A stretch of DNA of 40,001 nt from Nitrososphaerota archaeon (GTDB lineage Archaea > Thermoproteota > Nitrososphaeria > Nitrososphaerales > Nitrosopumilaceae): NCBI GenBank assembly GCA_027315065.1, contig DAHUYT010000011.1, forward strand, positions 12,305 through 52,305, written 5' to 3'. Positions 5,466 to 13,251 of this stretch are shown in pieces. The notes beneath the pieces were generated by a model, which was not told the origin of the DNA, made no database searches, and saw only the letters and a program-made list of their open reading frames with translations. How positions within the stretch are numbered: the first letter of the stretch is position 1; the number at the start of each line of letters is the position of its first letter. The translations under genes were made by a program, and so were the position numbers.

Positions 5466-5949
5466 GAGCTTGCTTGGATTAATCGGGTTATATACATTGA
5501 CATCATGTCTATCAACATACGGTCAACCGTCCAAGACTTGTTAGGTCATACTTATTTTGTCTGTAGAATTCACTTGAATCCTCCCACATGCCAAGATATG
5601 CAAATCATTTAATAGAAAAATGAGGCGACAGTACAAGAATCTCAGTTACATCAATCGTTATCATGAGATACTATCATACAAAAGACAATAAGATTTTGCG
5701 GGATCTGGGATCATTTAATAAAAATTCGTGCTTTATTGAACAACTCTGAATCTAGTTGTTAATTTTATAATTTTTGATATCTTGTATGACTTAGTTGATT
5801 ATTCGTGGCAGCCAGTATTGAAAAATTTATGACACTCAACGAATTTTGTAGTCGACAAAGCAAAAATTTGTTATTAGCCATAAATTGGACAGAACTATAA
5901 ATCTTGTATTATGCAATTAACTAATTTTATGAAAATATATAAAAGAAAT
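5466..5949. other. 484-bp intergenic region holding MITE copy 1
   Basis: Between the divergent end of the 4950 gene and the 3' end of glnK. It contains the promoter of the 4950 gene at its left side (TATA-like box 5489-5496), about 200 bp of AT-rich DNA in which I see no gene, and the 134-bp mobile element copy at 5729-5862. Confidence 0.7.
5729..5862. mobile_element. MITE-like element, copy 1
   Basis: 134 bp, starting TGCTTTATTGA and ending TCGACAAAGCA, an imperfect 11-bp terminal inverted repeat. It is flanked by an 8-bp near-perfect direct repeat (AAAATTCG at 5721-5728, AAAATTTG at 5863-5870), as left by transposition. Just inside the left end is a second inverted repeat AACAACT...AGTTGTT. 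It has no coding capacity. It matches copy 2 at 13061-13194 at 132 of 134 positions with no gaps, in the same orientation. A transposase elsewhere in the genome would have to mobilise it. Confidence 0.85.
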
Positions 5950-6303
5950 TTAGAGTGAAGGCTCGCCGCGCTTCTTAGTTCCAACATCTATGGCATCGTC
6001 TACATTGTAGATGAATATCTTACCTTCTCCTGACATCCCAGTACTTGCATGAGATGTTATAGCATCGACGACCTTGTCTACCATATTATCATGTACCACA
6101 ACATAGATGTTCACGTTCACATTGTAGGCAGATTGGAAGCGTCCGCTTCTTCCGGAGGATACCATTTCTCTAGGTCTTTTTCCCCTACCTTTCGCTGTGA
6201 AGTATGTGAAGCCGCCTATATCTAGTTGCGTTAATGCACTAAAGACTGCATCCAACTTGTCTTCTGGAATTACAGCTTCTATTTTTTTCATATCTAGATT
6301 CAT
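5950..6303 (-). CDS. glnK: PII family nitrogen regulatory protein (GlnK-like)
   Basis: 117 aa trimeric signal protein that binds ATP/ADP and often 2-oxoglutarate, and typically blocks Amt ammonium channels through its T-loop. The body matches PII: MKKIEAVIPEDKLDAVFSAL, B-loop STGMSGEGKIFIY (about 87-99) and C-loop GTKKRGE (108-114). The T-loop (about 37-58, GRGKRPREM...RFQSAY) is unusual: the position of canonical Gln39 appears to be Arg43, and the uridylylation tyrosine (Tyr51) is absent. Start could be 6303 or the Met at 6291 (MKKIEAV). It diverges from the Cas4-like gene across a 124-bp shared promoter region and is near amt. Confidence 0.92.
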   Translation of the reverse strand: MNLDMKKIEAVIPEDKLDAVFSALTQLDIGGFTYFTAKGRGKRPREMVSSGRSGRFQSAYNVNVNIYVVVHDNMVDKVVDAITSHASTGMSGEGKIFIYNVDDAIDVGTKKRGEPSL

Positions 6304-6385
6304 TGCAACTATGAAATACTTTTATTAAAATCGTTGCTTAGAAGTATACTGAAGAAGAAATAATATCATAAAAAAATGATTTTAG

Positions 6386-6405
6386 GATAAAATACCTTTT
6401 ATAGA
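6386..6405 (+). promoter_or_regulatory. Promoter of the Cas4-like gene, identical to the amt promoter
   Basis: A 20-bp element beginning GATAAAATACC and ending TTTTATAGA, containing a TATA box centred about 28 nt before the ATG at 6428. The same 20 bases occur at 9661-9680 before amt, and in both cases the element starts exactly 42 bp before the start codon. The spacing implies leaderless transcripts and joint regulation. Confidence 0.8.
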
Positions 6406-6427
6406 ACAAAACCCCCACTTTCAAAGA

Positions 6428-7174
6428 ATGACCGAATCTAAAATCAAGAAGGTTCGAATAGTAGAAAAAGTTCAAGAAAAGCTCAAGCAAGGAATAGATA
6501 ATTACAGAGCAGCAGGTGACGCAGCACCAAAATTTGATGTCTATGATGTGATAGAAGAAGTGTTTGCAGCAATTAATCCAACAATAGCTGACGAAGGTAA
6601 AGTAACAGTAGATGAGGTCAGCGGTTGTCTGCGAGCTTCATATCTGGATAGAAAGGATCCATCTGAAAAAACTCATAAACAAATGCTGTCAAAAATTATG
6701 CAAAAGAGCGCATTGAGTATTATGGAAAAGCCAATAGAAGGGCAACTTGATGCTGGCTCGGGCGTAAAACTAGTTGGCAGAGCAGAACGAGTTGAGGATG
6801 ATGTAGCAATGGTGTTCAAGACAGTAGAGGAATTACCAGAAATGCCATATGCCGAGCACTTCATACAACTGAATTCCTATCTGCACATGTTTAACAAACC
6901 AGAAGGGGTGATTGTTTACTTTGACAAGGAAGGAAATGAGATGGAATTTCAAGTTCCAAAAAGTGATAGGCTAATAGGTGAAACAAAACGCAGAGCTCGC
7001 ATATTGAACACACTGTTGAAAAATAATGTAGCTCCTATGATCGAACCGTCGGAGAGATGCCTTGAGTGTCCTCATAATGAAAAATGTTACTATGCATCTG
7101 AGGACAAGGTAAAGTGGGGATTCTGGGCTCGTGGAAAATGGCGCGAACTTAAACCCAAAGATGGCATCTTATAA
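6428..7174 (+). CDS. Cas4/PD-(D/E)XK-like Fe-S protein with degenerate nuclease motif
   Basis: 248 aa. The Cas4/AddB-type four-cysteine Fe-S pattern is present: C67 in SGCLRASYL, then C211, C214 and C220 in ERCLECPHNEKCYY. The helix following the nuclease core carries the QxxxY motif (Q147, Y151 in HFIQLNSYLHMF). The core itself is altered: the GxxD position reads GRAE (117-120) and the (D/E)xK position reads VFK (129-131), so the acidic metal ligand is missing and nuclease activity is doubtful. There are no cas genes or CRISPR repeats nearby. It diverges from glnK and shares its promoter with amt, which points to a role tied to nitrogen status rather than CRISPR immunity (inference). Confidence 0.8.
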   Translation: MTESKIKKVRIVEKVQEKLKQGIDNYRAAGDAAPKFDVYDVIEEVFAAINPTIADEGKVTVDEVSGCLRASYLDRKDPSEKTHKQMLSKIMQKSALSIMEKPIEGQLDAGSGVKLVGRAERVEDDVAMVFKTVEELPEMPYAEHFIQLNSYLHMFNKPEGVIVYFDKEGNEMEFQVPKSDRLIGETKRRARILNTLLKNNVAPMIEPSERCLECPHNEKCYYASEDKVKWGFWARGKWRELKPKDGIL

Positions 7175-7199
7175 CTACAATTTTTTTATTAATTTTCTT

Positions 7200-7934
7200 T
7201 TATAAAATTCCAATAATTGTATTAGATTTTTCGTCTCTACTCACAACTGCGTCCTCTGGAATCCATTCATATGGAGTTACCAGATATTTTTTACCGCCGA
7301 TTGTTAGTGTGATATACTTGTATCTTGCAACCATGTGCCGTTCTGCATAAGTTAGTAATGCGGATAGCGGAATAAATCGCAAGCCTGGCTCCAGAATCAT
7401 TTTTATGTTATCATCATATTTCCATACTGGATAAGGGAGCTCATCAGAATATTTTGGCTTGAAAAAATTAGGTTTAATTGCTATTGCAAGACAAAAAGAT
7501 AATGTGAGTATTCCAGCAATAAAGTATTCATCTGCAATAGAATTTGGAGAAATCACAGCAGCGTGTTTTATTCCATATCCTAATCGATTAGCTACATATG
7601 GGCTTGCCAGTTGTATTGTTGCATTTGTAGTATGAAAGAAGATCATTCCACCATAGGTCATCATAGCTCCTACGAGCGAAAGGAATGTACACGCGATATT
7701 TCTCCAAAAAATACTGATGACAAATAATGTGAGAATTAGTATGACTAAAAATTCTGTTTGTTGTCTTGTAGAAGGATTGGTCTGTGACACGAAATTGAGA
7801 ATAATTTGTAGAACAAAAACTGAGACCAAAATCAGAATACTAATCGTGAGCCAAAAATGGTTTCTATGTTGAAACCAATCTTGAGCTTTTTCAATGAAAA
7901 ACCATCTATCTTCAATATACTGTTTATTTCCCAC
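7200..7934 (-). CDS. Multi-pass membrane protein with C-terminal soluble domain, unknown
   Basis: 244 aa. Four hydrophobic segments (about 27-49, 61-80, 84-103, 139-156) precede a soluble tail that contains KYDDNIKMILEPGLRFIPLSALLTY and ITLTIGGKKYLVTPYEWIPEDAVV. No family recognised. It converges with the Cas4-like gene (25 bp apart) and is the first of a run of orphan genes (7200-9303) that separates glnK and the Cas4-like gene from amt. Confidence 0.65.
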   Translation of the reverse strand: MGNKQYIEDRWFFIEKAQDWFQHRNHFWLTISILILVSVFVLQIILNFVSQTNPSTRQQTEFLVILILTLFVISIFWRNIACTFLSLVGAMMTYGGMIFFHTTNATIQLASPYVANRLGYGIKHAAVISPNSIADEYFIAGILTLSFCLAIAIKPNFFKPKYSDELPYPVWKYDDNIKMILEPGLRFIPLSALLTYAERHMVARYKYITLTIGGKKYLVTPYEWIPEDAVVSRDEKSNTIIGIL

Positions 7935-7989
7935 AGATGTAATTATGCAGAGTAGAAATTATGTACTTCTATAGTTTACTTTAACAACA

Positions 7990-8199
7990 TTAACTTTCTA
8001 TATTCTTAAGGAAAACGCGAGTTTTATACGGCTTTGGCACGTCTTTGTGATAATATAATGCCTTAATCCCATGCTCAAAAGTCATTATCTTGATTGAATC
8101 TGTTGGTTGTAAGGTATTGTCAGTTTCTTTAAGATATTGGTATATCTCTCTTTCAGACATGCTGAGAATTTCACCTATCGTTTTTCTGCTTGGTTTCAA
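7990..8199 (-). CDS. Small protein with possible helix-turn-helix, unknown
   Basis: The frame is open from TTG 8241; I prefer TTG at 8199 because a TATATA element (complement of 8222-8229) sits 27 nt upstream, giving about 69 aa; ATG 8160 is another option. The N-terminal part, KPSRKTIGEILSMSEREIYQYLKE, has the spacing of a helix-turn-helix, followed by IKIMTFEHGIKALYYH. If real it could be a small DNA-binding protein. No family recognised. Confidence 0.45.
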   Translation of the reverse strand: MKPSRKTIGEILSMSEREIYQYLKETDNTLQPTDSIKIMTFEHGIKALYYHKDVPKPYKTRVFLKNIES

Positions 8200-8316
8200 T
8201 ATGTAAAAAATCCAACTCCAGTATATAATGTATATTTCCAAGCTTTACTGTGATTAATAAAAATATGATTCGGACAGGTCTAATGTTAAATACAGTAAAT
8301 GATTTTAAACGTTTGA

Positions 8317-8805
8317 ATGGTAGATTCTAAAATAGATTGGTTTGATGATTTCTTGGGGCTTGGATATCACATGTATGATGTTAGACCTACTGTTTTCTTG
8401 ATATTTAATGGAAGGAAAAAGATTGGTACCGCTTGGAACAAAATTATAAAATATTTTCCAGATGATGAGATAAAAATTAGATTTATAGAAAAAGAATCTA
8501 ACTATGAATTTGTTCTTTACTGTCAATCGCGCATATTGTCAACCATCTGGGTTTTTTTAAAATCTCTCAAGGTTTCAGAACATTATAAACAATTCAAAGA
8601 AGATTACGAGGGAGCTGCTAATCTAAAGCTTGCACTGTATATTCCAAAAAAAGATACGTATGAACTTGAAATATTCAAATATGTGAAAAGAATTACAGAT
8701 CTCAAGTTTCTGACGGAATCTGAGGTAGAACAAGATTTCATACTGGCAAGGTCAGTTGAGAATCTTCATAGGCCAAAGAATATTGATGACACTGATTTGA
8801 AATAG
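8317..8805 (+). CDS. Hypothetical protein
   Basis: 162 aa, soluble, no membrane segment or signal peptide, no motif recognised. GTTAAATACAG (8285-8295) is a TATA-like box 27 nt before the ATG, so the gene has a proper leaderless promoter. The composition is AT-rich (many K, I, F, Y, D). It converges with the PH-like gene at 8818. Confidence 0.6.
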   Translation: MVDSKIDWFDDFLGLGYHMYDVRPTVFLIFNGRKKIGTAWNKIIKYFPDDEIKIRFIEKESNYEFVLYCQSRILSTIWVFLKSLKVSEHYKQFKEDYEGAANLKLALYIPKKDTYELEIFKYVKRITDLKFLTESEVEQDFILARSVENLHRPKNIDDTDLK

Positions 8806-8817
8806 ATTCTAATCGAT

Positions 8818-9303
8818 TTACATGTGCGATTTTAACAAGGTTACCCAATCTGTCCAATCCAAACTATAATACATCAATGGCTGTCGCTGTGGATAGCTTA
8901 TCACTGATTTTGTTATTGCAAAATCATATTTTTTTATCTTGTTTTTTTCATCCTTGAATGTTATTCTTAGAAAATTTACTTTCCTTATTGTAACACTTTC
9001 TACATTTACTAAGGAATTTAATGGAATTATCTGACTCTTGGAATTCTTTGATATATCCTCATCTAGATCCGCCTCGGAATAATTGGCAAGTTTTGTTACT
9101 ATGGCCTTGTCACCTCCGAAATATTTTTCTCTTTCATTAGACATGAGTTGCAAGAATCTTGGTACAAAGATTATGTTTTTGTTTGTTAATGCAAAAACGC
9201 CTTCCTTACTTTTATGAAAGAAACCTGATAATCCATGAGCAATATCCCAAATCTTAGGAAGCGAAGCTATGATGTATTCCTCGTCCTCTAAATTAACTCT
9301 CAC
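8818..9303 (-). CDS. PH-domain-like hypothetical protein
   Basis: 161 aa, soluble. The order of strands and the phrase GVFALTNKNIIFVPRF (about 35-50), then IIPLNSLVNVESVTIRKVNFLRITFKDEKNKIKKYDFAI, resemble bacterial/archaeal PH-like domains (GRAM/bPH type, 'ltn.rliy...'), which often act as small adaptors at membranes. The start is GTG at 9303. The assignment is from pattern only and the partner is unknown. Confidence 0.6.
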   Translation of the reverse strand: MRVNLEDEEYIIASLPKIWDIAHGLSGFFHKSKEGVFALTNKNIIFVPRFLQLMSNEREKYFGGDKAIVTKLANYSEADLDEDISKNSKSQIIPLNSLVNVESVTIRKVNFLRITFKDEKNKIKKYDFAITKSVISYPQRQPLMYYSLDWTDWVTLLKSHM

Positions 9304-9376
9304 TGAAATAAACCATGTCGGTATTGGTAAATCAATCTATCTTGTTTATATTGAAATATTAAAAATAACGCGGATT

Positions 9377-9538
9377 TTATGGATGGCCTTCGCCTTCAAA
9401 TGTCATTCCATAAGTTCCAACATGCTTACCTTCTCTGATCCTCTTGTATCTATATGCTCTTTCGCCAAAGTAAATGGCAATAGTCATTCCAAGAGTAACC
9501 GCAGTTGCAATGAATATATTTATGCCTGCTTCTGCCAT
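9377..9538 (-). CDS. 53-aa single-pass membrane protein
   Basis: Reads MAEAGINIFIATAVTLGMTI... and ends FEGEGHP, 53 aa; an in-frame ATG at 9547 would add three residues. One membrane helix (about 6-24) is followed by a strongly basic stretch (ERAYRYKRIREGKH) and an acidic-Gly tail. The element TATAATAA (9561-9568, read on the minus strand) is centred 27 nt before ATG 9538, the same leaderless geometry as amt and the amo genes. It is divergent from amt with about 160 bp between the starts. Size and form suggest a small subunit of a membrane complex; which one cannot be told. Confidence 0.75.
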   Translation of the reverse strand: MAEAGINIFIATAVTLGMTIAIYFGERAYRYKRIREGKHVGTYGMTFEGEGHP

Positions 9539-9660
9539 GGCAAACATACTATTTAGCTTGTATAATAATTTTTTTTAAGATTTTTTGAAATTTTATGATA
9601 CCATACTTACGATCAAAAAGCCAGTCAGTTCTGTATTGTATCATAAAAAGAATTTTCTAA

Positions 9661-9680
9661 GATAAAATACCTTTTATAGA
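9661..9680 (+). promoter_or_regulatory. amt promoter
   Basis: The same 20-bp sequence as at 6386-6405 (GATAAAATACC...TATAGA), starting 42 bp before the ATG at 9703. The TATA core CTTTTATA is centred about 28 nt upstream of the start, so the amt transcript is probably leaderless. Confidence 0.85.
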
Positions 9681-9702
9681 CGGCAACCTTCTCTACGAAA
9701 AG

Positions 9703-11208
9703 ATGTCGGAAACAATCTCGAGAACGCCATTACAGATAATATCTAAGCACAAGTGGCCGCTCGTTTTTGCCCTAGCAGCTTTGGTTGTTACAATGTCGGG
9801 ACTCACTGCAATACAAGACGCAAATGCGCAATTTGGTCCAATAAACAAACTAGCTAATCCACAAATGACACATGAAATTCACTGTGGTCAACCAATGACA
9901 CCACCAGGTAACGGAACATTTGGTGGTAGTGAAGCACCATGTATTGATACAGGCGACACGACATTCATGTACGCAGCAGCCGTGTTCGTCATGATTATGA
10001 CTCCGGGAGGCGTCGGTTTCTTGTACGGTGGTTTATCACGAAGAAAACACGCACTCATGGTAATCTTACAAAACTTCATGGTATACGCAATTGTGAGTGT
10101 CCAGTGGGTCATTTGGGGCTACTCTATAATGTTTGGTCCATCTGCAGATCCATATGGTTTCATTGGAAACTTGGATTGGGTTGGACTGAATAATGTCTTC
10201 CATAATGCACCAGCTGATGTTTATGCACCAACGATTCCACATTTGGCATATGTGATGTTCCAGCTCATGTTCGCAGCCATCACACCTGCACTGGCAATAG
10301 CAGGATACGCTGATAGAGTTAAGATGAGTGCATTCCTAATACACATAGTACTGTGGACCACATTTGTCTATGACTTTGTGGGACATGCGAACTGGTCACT
10401 TGGAAGCCAAGGCACCGCAGTAGGTTGGCTTGCCAACATTGGAACTGAAGACTTTGCAGGAGGGACAGTCATCCACATAACATCAGGTTTTGCTGGACTG
10501 GCTGCAGCAATGTTCCTTGGAAGGAGAATAGGTTATGGGAAGGCCCCATTTGAACCTCATTCGATTCCACTGATCATGTTAGGCGCTGTACTGCTCTGGT
10601 TTGGTTGGTTCGGTTTCAACCCAGGAAGTGCAGGATTTGCGGGCTTTCTTGAAACTCAGGCTTTCCAAAACACAAACCTTGCAACAGCTGTTGCAGCAAT
10701 TTGGTGGATGTTTTTGGCTTGGGCTCACACAGGAAAAGCGAGTGCGATTGGCGCTGCTAACGGGGCAGTAGCAGGACTTGTAGCAATTACCCCTGCGTCA
10801 GGATTCATTGGAACGTGGGCATCCATAATTGTAGGCTTTGCTTGCGCGACAGTCTGCTTTTACTGTGTTCTAATCAAGAACAGGAAAAGAATAGATGATG
10901 CACTAGACACATGGGGTGTACACGGAATGGGCGGTGTAGTTGGTGCTCTTTTAACAGGTGCATTCAGCGAAACGCGAATCAATCCGTATGGTCACAACGG
11001 GCTATTCTTTGGAAATCCAATGCAGTTTGTGATAAACTGTGAGGGAGCAGGCTTTGGAGCAGCATGGTCGTTTGGTATAACTTACATCATATGGAGAATA
11101 CAAGACGCGATTTGGCCTGGCGGTGTAAGGGTAACACCAAAAGAAGAAGAAATAGGCTTAGACTTGTCGCAAGTCGGAGAAAGGGCATACTCACAGTTTG
11201 CGGAGTAG
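9703..11208 (+). CDS. amt: Ammonium transporter, Amt/MEP/Rh family
   Basis: 501 aa. Moves ammonium across the cytoplasmic membrane to feed biosynthesis and keep intracellular supply. An N-terminal hydrophobic segment (19-37, likely a signal peptide) and an extracellular stretch with C61 and C80 precede 11 membrane helices. Signature features: TPGGVGFLYGGLSRRKHA (100-117), the first pore-lining twin histidine H258 in GGTVIHITSG, and the second H407 in DTWGVHGMGGVVGALLTGAF. FNPGSAG follows the family too. GlnK is encoded 3.4 kb away and is the likely gate. A pyrimidine-rich tract (CCCCTTATTTTTCTGTTTATTCTT) after the stop looks like a terminator. Confidence 0.97.
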   Translation: MSETISRTPLQIISKHKWPLVFALAALVVTMSGLTAIQDANAQFGPINKLANPQMTHEIHCGQPMTPPGNGTFGGSEAPCIDTGDTTFMYAAAVFVMIMTPGGVGFLYGGLSRRKHALMVILQNFMVYAIVSVQWVIWGYSIMFGPSADPYGFIGNLDWVGLNNVFHNAPADVYAPTIPHLAYVMFQLMFAAITPALAIAGYADRVKMSAFLIHIVLWTTFVYDFVGHANWSLGSQGTAVGWLANIGTEDFAGGTVIHITSGFAGLAAAMFLGRRIGYGKAPFEPHSIPLIMLGAVLLWFGWFGFNPGSAGFAGFLETQAFQNTNLATAVAAIWWMFLAWAHTGKASAIGAANGAVAGLVAITPASGFIGTWASIIVGFACATVCFYCVLIKNRKRIDDALDTWGVHGMGGVVGALLTGAFSETRINPYGHNGLFFGNPMQFVINCEGAGFGAAWSFGITYIIWRIQDAIWPGGVRVTPKEEEIGLDLSQVGERAYSQFAE

Positions 11209-11330
11209 CGCTTTCAAGAACCCCTTATTTTTCTGTTTATTCTTACTGCATAACCAAAATATGGTGTAAAATGAGATGAGTTTGTATTGATTTCAGAAAC
11301 GGTAAAAAGTGGGGGGCTTAGACTCAAACG

Positions 11331-11525
11331 ATGGTAGATAGATGGCTTGCATTTTGCCTATTGCAGTTTGTAAGTGCAGTATTAGGATTTTTATGGGGAT
11401 TTTATGTGCGAAGTCCGCTCTTCTTATACATAGGAGGATTTTTTTTCTCACTTGGCGTATTTGCTATAACGCGATGGGGATATGATAGATGGAAGGCAAA
11501 ACAAAAACCAAGGCGACGCAAATAA
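11331..11525 (+). CDS. Small two-helix membrane protein
   Basis: 64 aa: two hydrophobic segments (about 5-24 and 28-46) separated by a short RSP turn, then a basic tail RWKAKQKPRRRK that should face the cytoplasm. The start is ATG. It is followed by a T-rich run. No family recognised; it lies 122 bp downstream of amt on the same strand but after a likely terminator. Confidence 0.6.
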   Translation: MVDRWLAFCLLQFVSAVLGFLWGFYVRSPLFLYIGGFFFSLGVFAITRWGYDRWKAKQKPRRRK

Positions 11526-11629
11526 AAATTAATTTTTATTATCATTTTAAAATCATCTTTTTAAAATAAATTTTTTTACAGATTAGGTTTGTTTATATCG
11601 ATCACTACTACGAGTACTCTTGATATTAT

Positions 11630-12322
11630 TTGTCTAAAGACGGAACAACTCGTTTGACCAGAAAACGAAGATATGTACTTTTTGCAGTTATTACGGCATT
11701 AGGAGTAACATTCGCATTTTATAATTCACTGAATAGCTTCCATTACTCACATTCAAAAGAATGGAATTTTGATTCATATCAAAATAATACCACGCCTGAA
11801 GATTTTATCTCATTTCAATCTAATTCTTTACCTGAATTATGGGTGGTAAAGACCGACAGTTCAGCACCGTCACAACCTAATGTGCTGGCAGCGTTGCCTG
11901 CGGAGAACAGTACCGGGTATCACATACAAGTGATGCCAGACTCTCCTACTACATCTGATGCCAAAATAAGCGTAAAATTCATGATATTGCCAGGCCGTGA
12001 GGTAGAACAGGCAGGTCTAATAGTCCGCTTTATAGACCCGCATCACTATTTTGTTTTGATAGCAGACCCGATAAATAGTAGGATCTCATTATGTAAATCT
12101 ACCACTCAATTCCTAATTTGTAACTATGAAACTCGGGCCCAGCTTAGTACTGGAATATGGTATACTTTGGAAGCCACCATATCATCACAAGGAATTGGTG
12201 GTTGGTTGGATGGCAAAGAGGTAATAAAGGCCAATAATAATTACTATCAAACAGGACAAATTGGATTGTGGACTAAAGGGGACACTGAAGCTTATTTTGA
12301 TGACTTGCAAATCAAGTATTAA
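11630..12322 (+). CDS. Membrane-anchored LamG/concanavalin-like domain protein
   Basis: 230 aa. A basic N-terminus (RLTRKRRY) and one membrane helix (about 15-32) anchor an outside domain. The sequence WNFDSYQNNTTPEDFISF...ISVKFMILPGREVEQAGLIVRFIDPHHYFVLIADP...GIWYTLEATISSQGIGGWLDGKEVIKA...GQIGLWTKGDTEAYFDDLQI matches the jelly-roll pattern of the LamG/DUF1080 superfamily, which binds or cleaves glycans. No catalytic residues can be assigned, so a binding role is likelier. The start is TTG with TTTATATCG (11591-11599) upstream. Confidence 0.7.
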   Translation: MSKDGTTRLTRKRRYVLFAVITALGVTFAFYNSLNSFHYSHSKEWNFDSYQNNTTPEDFISFQSNSLPELWVVKTDSSAPSQPNVLAALPAENSTGYHIQVMPDSPTTSDAKISVKFMILPGREVEQAGLIVRFIDPHHYFVLIADPINSRISLCKSTTQFLICNYETRAQLSTGIWYTLEATISSQGIGGWLDGKEVIKANNNYYQTGQIGLWTKGDTEAYFDDLQIKY

Positions 12323-12388
12323 CAACTGATCAATTATTCTAAACCCAAAAATTGAAAGTTTAATTAAATGATTAGTTGAAACTAAAAT

Positions 12389-12697
12389 ATGCTGTTTGGT
12401 ATTTTTGCTGTGCACAGTCCAGAGTCATGCCCATTAAACAATGTGAGGAGTAAGAGAATTTTTCTGGAAATTCAAAATAAAATGAAAGTAAACATGAAGA
12501 AATTCCACGTATCGAAGATCATAGCATTTTACATGTCAGTACTTGAACATGAATGGATAATTATCTTGGATGCCGAAAACGCGCATGATATAGAACGACT
12601 CTGCATTGCAGTTGGAATTTCGTCCATAAGTACAGTAAAAATTGTACCAATGAGTGATTTTAAAGAAACTGTAAAGCGACTGGAATCTCAAAACTGA
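12389..12697 (+). CDS. DUF3303-like alpha/beta barrel protein
   Basis: 102 aa. Pattern of small dimeric ferredoxin-like folds: MLFGIFAVHSPESCPLNN, then a helix, HVSKIIAFYMSVLEHEWIIILDAENAHDIERLCIAVGI, then VKIVPMSDFKETVKRL. The phrase 'eHe...ldA.n...ie.l' recalls DUF3303/YCII-like families common in these archaea, of unknown function. A TATA-like box (TTTAATTAAATG, about 12358-12369) sits 27 nt before the ATG. Confidence 0.6.
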   Translation: MLFGIFAVHSPESCPLNNVRSKRIFLEIQNKMKVNMKKFHVSKIIAFYMSVLEHEWIIILDAENAHDIERLCIAVGISSISTVKIVPMSDFKETVKRLESQN

Positions 12698-12762
12698 GCA
12701 CTGTGGACCTCTCATTTGCCTATATAGGCAAGGATTAGTATGACAATGATGAAAGATTTGAT

Positions 12763-13059
12763 GTGAGTTCAAGTCATGATAATAATAACACTGGGAAAGT
12801 TAATCTTAAAAGTCAACTAATTCTGGCATTAATTCCAAGTTTTATTTCGCAGATAATTGCCTTTTACAGGATTAAGAAACTGTTTCATGGGATTATCGTG
12901 GAGGCTGTAGTTTTCTTTATTGATTTGATTATTCAACTGATAGTATCCTGGCCTGTTGGAATGCTGATAACTTTTCCTATCACAGTTGGAGTGCCTGCAT
13001 ATTATGTCAGAAAATGGACAATAGAGTTTAATCGTGCAAATAAAGGCTTATTCGGATAA
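12763..13059 (+). CDS. Small membrane protein, 3' end abuts MITE copy 2
   Basis: 98 aa from GTG 12763. After a polar N-terminus (SSSHDNNNTGKVN) come two or three hydrophobic stretches (about 18-36, 42-62, 66-80), then RKWTIEFNRANKGLFG. CCTATATAGGC (about 12719-12729) is a TATA-like box. The stop codon lies inside the 8-bp target duplication left of the MITE at 13061, so the insertion fell exactly at the gene's end. The reading frame does not appear broken, but the original C-terminus could have differed. No family recognised. Confidence 0.55.
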   Translation: MSSSHDNNNTGKVNLKSQLILALIPSFISQIIAFYRIKKLFHGIIVEAVVFFIDLIIQLIVSWPVGMLITFPITVGVPAYYVRKWTIEFNRANKGLFG

Positions 13060-13060
13060 T

Positions 13061-13194
13061 TGCTTTGTTGAACAACTCTGAATCTAGTTGTTAATTTTAT
13101 AATTTTTGATATCTTGTATGACTTAGTTGATTATTCGTGGCAGCCAGTATTGAAAAATTTATGACACTCGACGAATTTTGTAGTCGACAAAGCA
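13061..13194. mobile_element. MITE-like element, copy 2
   Basis: 134 bp, ends TGCTTTGTTGA / TCGACAAAGCA, forming an 11-bp terminal inverted repeat with one mismatch. Flanks CGGATAAT (13053-13060) and CGGATTGT (13195-13202) are a decayed 8-bp target duplication (6 of 8). It differs from copy 1 only at two A/G positions. It lies 57 bp beyond the 3' end of amoB. Confidence 0.85.
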
Positions 13195-13251
13195 CGGATT
13201 GTGAAATTTTCTAGTTGGGGCTAAGAAAATGAAAAGAGAGGGGGTGATTTT

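What the first reader, a model, noticed from the sequence alone, without database searches (positions are those of the whole stretch)
5729..13194. Pair of 132/134-identical MITE-like elements with terminal repeats and target duplications
Copies at 5729-5862 and 13061-13194 align without gaps and differ only at two A/G positions. Each ends in an 11-bp inverted repeat (TGCTTTGTYGA) and is flanked by an 8-bp direct repeat (7 of 8 and 6 of 8 matches). There is no coding capacity. This is the hallmark of a recently active non-autonomous transposon in an ammonia-oxidising archaeon.
Basis: seen in the sequence. Interest (0 to 1): 0.75.

Follow-up and report, generated by a model that had tools for sequence, protein, structure and literature searches.

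The report
Small transposon relic pair in archaeon
Two nearly identical 134-base stretches are copies of a tiny "passenger" jumping element that borrows the transposase of a known insertion-sequence family (IS5, ISH1-like); this is an ordinary kind of mobile DNA, though we found no paper describing such elements in ammonia-oxidising archaea.

Summary
The copies at 5729-5862 and 13061-13194 differ at 2 of 134 bases, have terminal inverted repeats and carry imperfect 8-bp flanking repeats (7/8 and 6/8). Three more full-length copies (81-86% identical where aligned) and a 30-bp fragment lie elsewhere in the genome; all full copies are intergenic. At the 13061 site and at a third copy's site, sister species have the flanking genes without the element. 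The matching autonomous partner was found through its ends: about 1-kb IS5-family elements (NCBIfam transpos_IS5_2) with TGCTYTGTYGACTAACTC-type ends and perfect 8-bp duplications in related archaea, including a decayed copy in the same genus. The window's own assembly holds only transposase remnants, one a 268-bp internally deleted IS. So this is a MITE family, most likely mobilised in trans by an IS5/ISH1-like transposase. "Recently active" is only partly supported: the bodies are nearly identical, but the duplications carry 3 mismatches in 16, so the 13061 copy looks old. Either the 5729 copy is a younger daughter, or gene conversion homogenised two old copies. No intact transposase is in this assembly. 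New member of a known kind.

The parts
5729..5862 (+). MITE copy 1 (134 bp); carries both derived G-to-A changes (positions 7 and 110)
   Evidence: alignment A1
5721..5728 (+). left 8-bp target duplication AAAATTCG
5863..5870 (+). right 8-bp target duplication AAAATTTG (7/8)
13061..13194 (+). MITE copy 2 (134 bp), 1 bp after the stop codon of the ORF 12763-13059 and 57 bp beyond the 3' end of convergent amoB
13053..13060 (+). left 8-bp target duplication CGGATAAT (holds the TAA stop codon of the upstream ORF)
13195..13202 (+). right 8-bp target duplication CGGATTGT (6/8)
5729..5739 (+). left terminal inverted repeat TGCTTTATTGA of copy 1
5852..5862 (-). right terminal inverted repeat TGCTTTGTCGA of copy 1
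13061..13071 (+). left terminal inverted repeat TGCTTTGTTGA of copy 2
13184..13194 (-). right terminal inverted repeat TGCTTTGTCGA of copy 2

Best explanation
The two sequences are copies of a MITE: a short non-coding element whose terminal repeats are recognised by a transposase encoded elsewhere. The transposase is most likely an IS5-family, ISH1-like DDE enzyme. It would bind the TGCTYTGTYGACTAACTC-type ends, cut the element out, and insert it at a staggered 8-bp cut that is repaired into an 8-bp duplication. The end match, the 8-bp duplication and the empty sites are shown; mobilisation in trans is inferred. Copy 2 (13061) is the older insertion. Copy 1 (5729) is a later daughter of it (or of an unassembled sister), or else the two were made alike by gene conversion. 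No function for the host is indicated.
For: Five full-length copies plus one 30-bp end in this genome, all full copies between genes. Empty sites: both flanking genes found without the element for copy 2 and for the C33 copy (56 bp between the flanks in the closest relative versus 196 bp here). Full-length partners with the same type of ends and perfect 8-bp duplications: 1007 bp (AGTTGTGT twice), 1051 bp (GGGTCTGC twice), and a decayed 1096-bp one in the same genus (GTTTACTC twice). Their transposases are IS5 (NF033579, E 1e-74 to 1e-90; PF01609). This genome holds remnants: a 268-bp deleted IS with TTTTTTCC twice and the transposase C-terminus, and C65:32882-33265. A same-genus genome has contig ends made of the same IS ends, as expected of a multicopy IS. 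134-137-bp MITEs with the same type of ends occur in another family of the order, one with a perfect duplication GTAATACA.
Against: No intact transposase with these ends is in the 86-contig assembly. Similarity between the MITE and any IS is confined to the terminal repeats of about 12-19 bp, so the pairing rests on ends and duplication length. All five copies have imperfect or ambiguous duplications. The exact pre-insertion sequence of copy 1 cannot be shown, because sister species lack about 270 bp around it as well.
Confidence: 0.88

Rival explanations
1. The near identity of the two copies comes from gene conversion between two old MITE insertions 7.3 kb apart in direct orientation, not from recent transposition (a rival about age and history, not about the MITE identity).
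For: 3 mismatches in 16 duplication bases versus 2 in 134 body bases (Fisher p 0.009; Poisson p 0.002 if both were fresh). The other old copies show the same duplication decay.
Against: Both substitutions are on the copy 1 lineage (the other copies all have G at both sites). A scenario in which copy 2 is an old donor and copy 1 a daughter needs only one duplication mismatch in the young copy (expected about 0.12-0.24, so p about 0.11-0.21; hand calculation). The two share a 4-bp deletion next to the right repeat, which either history explains.
Confidence: 0.35
2. A duplicated regulatory or RNA element (terminator, riboregulator) rather than a transposon.
For: Copy 2 lies between convergent genes, 57 bp beyond amoB; copy 1 lies next to the P-II gene.
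Against: Empty sites in sister species, 8-bp duplications, copies beside unrelated genes, no Rfam family, no unusual folding.
Confidence: 0.03
3. A MITE of another IS family that uses 8-bp duplications (for example IS1595 or IS6).
For: A degraded IS1595 transposase is in this genome.
Against: IS1595 loci in this and related genomes lack these ends, whereas the full-size elements with these ends encode IS5 transposases or their remnants. IS6 was not searched for.
Confidence: 0.05

Closest known systems
IS5 family, ISH1 group insertion sequences (e.g. ISTth7, listed as IS5/ISH1: 900-1150 bp, 8-bp direct repeats, one ORF; PMC6352166)
   Same: 8-bp duplication; the partners found here are 1.0-1.1 kb with one IS5 transposase ORF and ends beginning TGC or TAC
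   Different: the MITE is 134 bp, has no ORF, and shares only the terminal repeats with the IS
Prokaryotic MITEs (reviewed in PMC10969869; archaeal cases named there: Sulfolobus, Halobacterium, Haloquadratum, Desulfurococcus)
   Same: short, non-coding, multicopy, terminal inverted repeats, target duplications, intergenic
   Different: host is an ammonia-oxidising archaeon; the review's text has no word beginning 'Nitroso', and the survey of thaumarchaeal mobile elements PMC6563490 reports IS but has no occurrence of 'MITE'

Membership tests
MITE | short, no transposase ORF | tested here: met
   134-143 bp, no ORF
MITE | terminal inverted repeats | tested here: met
MITE | target site duplication | tested here: met
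   8 bp, 6-7 of 8 matching, versus 0.6% and 0.09% of random positions; none of the MITE-1 copies is a clean 8/8
MITE | multicopy at unrelated sites with empty orthologous sites | tested here: met
   five full copies; empty sites at two
MITE | cognate autonomous element sharing the ends | tested here: met
   in related species, and as remnants in this genome; no intact copy in the same assembly
MITE | mobilisation in trans shown by experiment | not testable with these tools
   -
IS5/ISH1-group transposon (partner elements) | IS5-type DDE transposase | tested here: met
   NF033579 and PF01609
IS5/ISH1-group transposon (partner elements) | 8-bp duplication, 900-1150 bp, one ORF | tested here: met
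   1007 and 1051 bp with 8/8 duplications; group values from PMC6352166
IS5/ISH1-group transposon (partner elements) | phylogenetic placement within the ISH1 group | not tested
   no ISfinder reference set at hand
IS1595-derived MITE | IS1595 element with the same ends | tested here: not met
   IS1595 loci of this and related genomes lack the ends

The most novel reading that the evidence does not exclude
The MITE copies evolve in concert by gene conversion in an archaeon that has lost its active transposase, so that near-identical copies mislead about recent transposition.
Probability: 0.3. Interest if true: 0.4.

Novelty: new member of a known kind. Interest (0 to 1): 0.22.

Why it matters
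It adds a MITE family with an identified type of partner IS to ammonia-oxidising archaea, for which MITEs were not described in the papers found here. It also shows that copy identity alone can overstate recent activity: the target duplications suggest a different age. Practically, the element and its TGCTYTGTYGACTAACTC-type ends can be used to annotate mobile DNA across the order.

Tried and rejected
IS1595 as partner: PF12762 matches occur in this and related genomes, but none carries these ends. Exact end pattern in 84,980 genomes: three Bacteroidota hits, two of them inside a ribosomal protein gene and one inside another unrelated gene, so chance. Viral contigs: none. Structured RNA: no. 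The extra roughly 270 bp around copy 1: its left 229 bp have no second copy in the genome and the region shows no transposase similarity. A 5-bp duplication (AAAAT and CGGAT are perfect in the two window copies) was considered, but the C33 and C85 copies and the full-length IS fit 8 bp. Weak model hits in sister species were treated as noise except one (138 bp, E 2.5e-4).

Full report
Observation. The flanking 8-mers match 7/8 and 6/8. In the window, 8-mers at that spacing match at least 6/8 in only 0.6% of positions, and further copies show the same, so these are decayed target duplications.

Family in this genome. A search of the window's own assembly (1.74 Mb, 86 contigs; window = C2:12305-52305) gives three more full-length copies at C13, C33 and C85 (81-86% identity where aligned, 136-143 bp) and a 30-bp end at C32. 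Flanks: C33 6/8, C85 6/8, C13 seven contiguous bases in a poly-A context. All full copies are intergenic. No blastn match was found in 60 related genomes. A sequence model finds one weak full-length relative (138 bp, E 2.5e-4) in a sister species, with one end TGCTTTGTTGATTAACTT.

Empty sites. For copy 2, sister species have the ORF upstream and amoB downstream with a short spacer and no element. The insertion lies 1 bp after the upstream ORF's stop codon, which is kept. For the C33 copy, the closest relative has 56 bp between the flanking matches where this genome has 196 bp. For copy 1, sister species have a short spacer of a few tens of bases between the two genes, whereas this genome has over 400 bp, of which only 142 is MITE plus duplication. 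So the whole stretch is absent there and the exact empty form cannot be shown. The left part of that extra stretch is single-copy.

Partner. The ends of the MITE and of a 268-bp element at C33:71095-71362 (TTTTTTCC on both sides) resemble TGCTYTGTYGACTAACTC. Searching 400 genomes of the order with this motif led to full-length elements with perfect 8-bp duplications: 1007 bp in G373, 1051 bp in G111, and 1096 bp (decayed) in G029 of the same genus. Multicopy 997-bp elements with similar ends occur in G085, a genome of another family of the order. The ORFs are IS5-family transposases (NF033579, PF01609), and the decayed G029 element still encodes pieces of one. IS5 of the ISH1 group is listed at 900-1150 bp with 8-bp repeats and one ORF (PMC6352166), which fits. 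A transposase search of this genome found only remnants: C65:32882-33265, and the last 28-30 residues inside the 268-bp element, which is therefore an internally deleted IS. In G026, same genus, four contig starts and one contig end consist of the same type of IS end, as a multicopy IS would give. MITEs of 134-137 bp with the same kind of ends occur in G142 in another family, one with a perfect duplication; they show no clear similarity to the window's MITE beyond the ends, so small derivatives may have arisen more than once (inference).

How recent. If both window copies were fresh, 0.24 duplication mismatches would be expected in 16 bases; 3 are seen (p 0.002). Both body changes fall on copy 1 (A against G in all other copies). 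A scenario that fits is an old copy 2, whose right-hand duplication has drifted while the left is held by the stop codon, and a younger copy 1. Gene conversion of two old copies fits as well. "Recently active" is thus possible but not shown.

Known or new. This meets the sequence-based criteria for a MITE with an IS5 partner. The host is an ammonia oxidiser by its archaeal AmoA, with AmoB, AmoC, P-II and an ammonium transporter; the genus name was not determined. No paper in the held library has both "miniature inverted-repeat transposable" and "ammonia-oxidizing archae", and a survey of thaumarchaeal mobile elements (PMC6563490) reports IS but does not use the word MITE; its supplementary IS table could not be read. 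New member of a known kind.

Noticed in passing
window 5505-5728 and 5871-5920: About 270 bp of extra sequence around MITE copy 1 that is missing between the same two genes in sister species; possible older nested insertion with faint ACATCATG/AAATCTTG flanks.
   Followed up: partly
L043:6096-6363 (G000:C33:71095-71362): 268-bp internally deleted IS5 element with a perfect 8-bp duplication and the C-terminus of its transposase; a related stretch at G000:C34:5900-6160 begins with the same end.
   Followed up: partly
L054 (G000:C51:4002-4312): Degraded IS1595 transposase with an assembly gap of N inside a repeated stretch.
   Followed up: partly
L104, L105, L113 (G142, genus g8): 134-137-bp MITEs with the same terminal motif in another family of the order; several g8 genomes hold 17-32 matches to the motif.
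   Followed up: partly
L099, L100 (G026): Several contigs start or end inside the same kind of IS5 element, as if a multicopy IS were collapsed at contig ends.
   Followed up: partly
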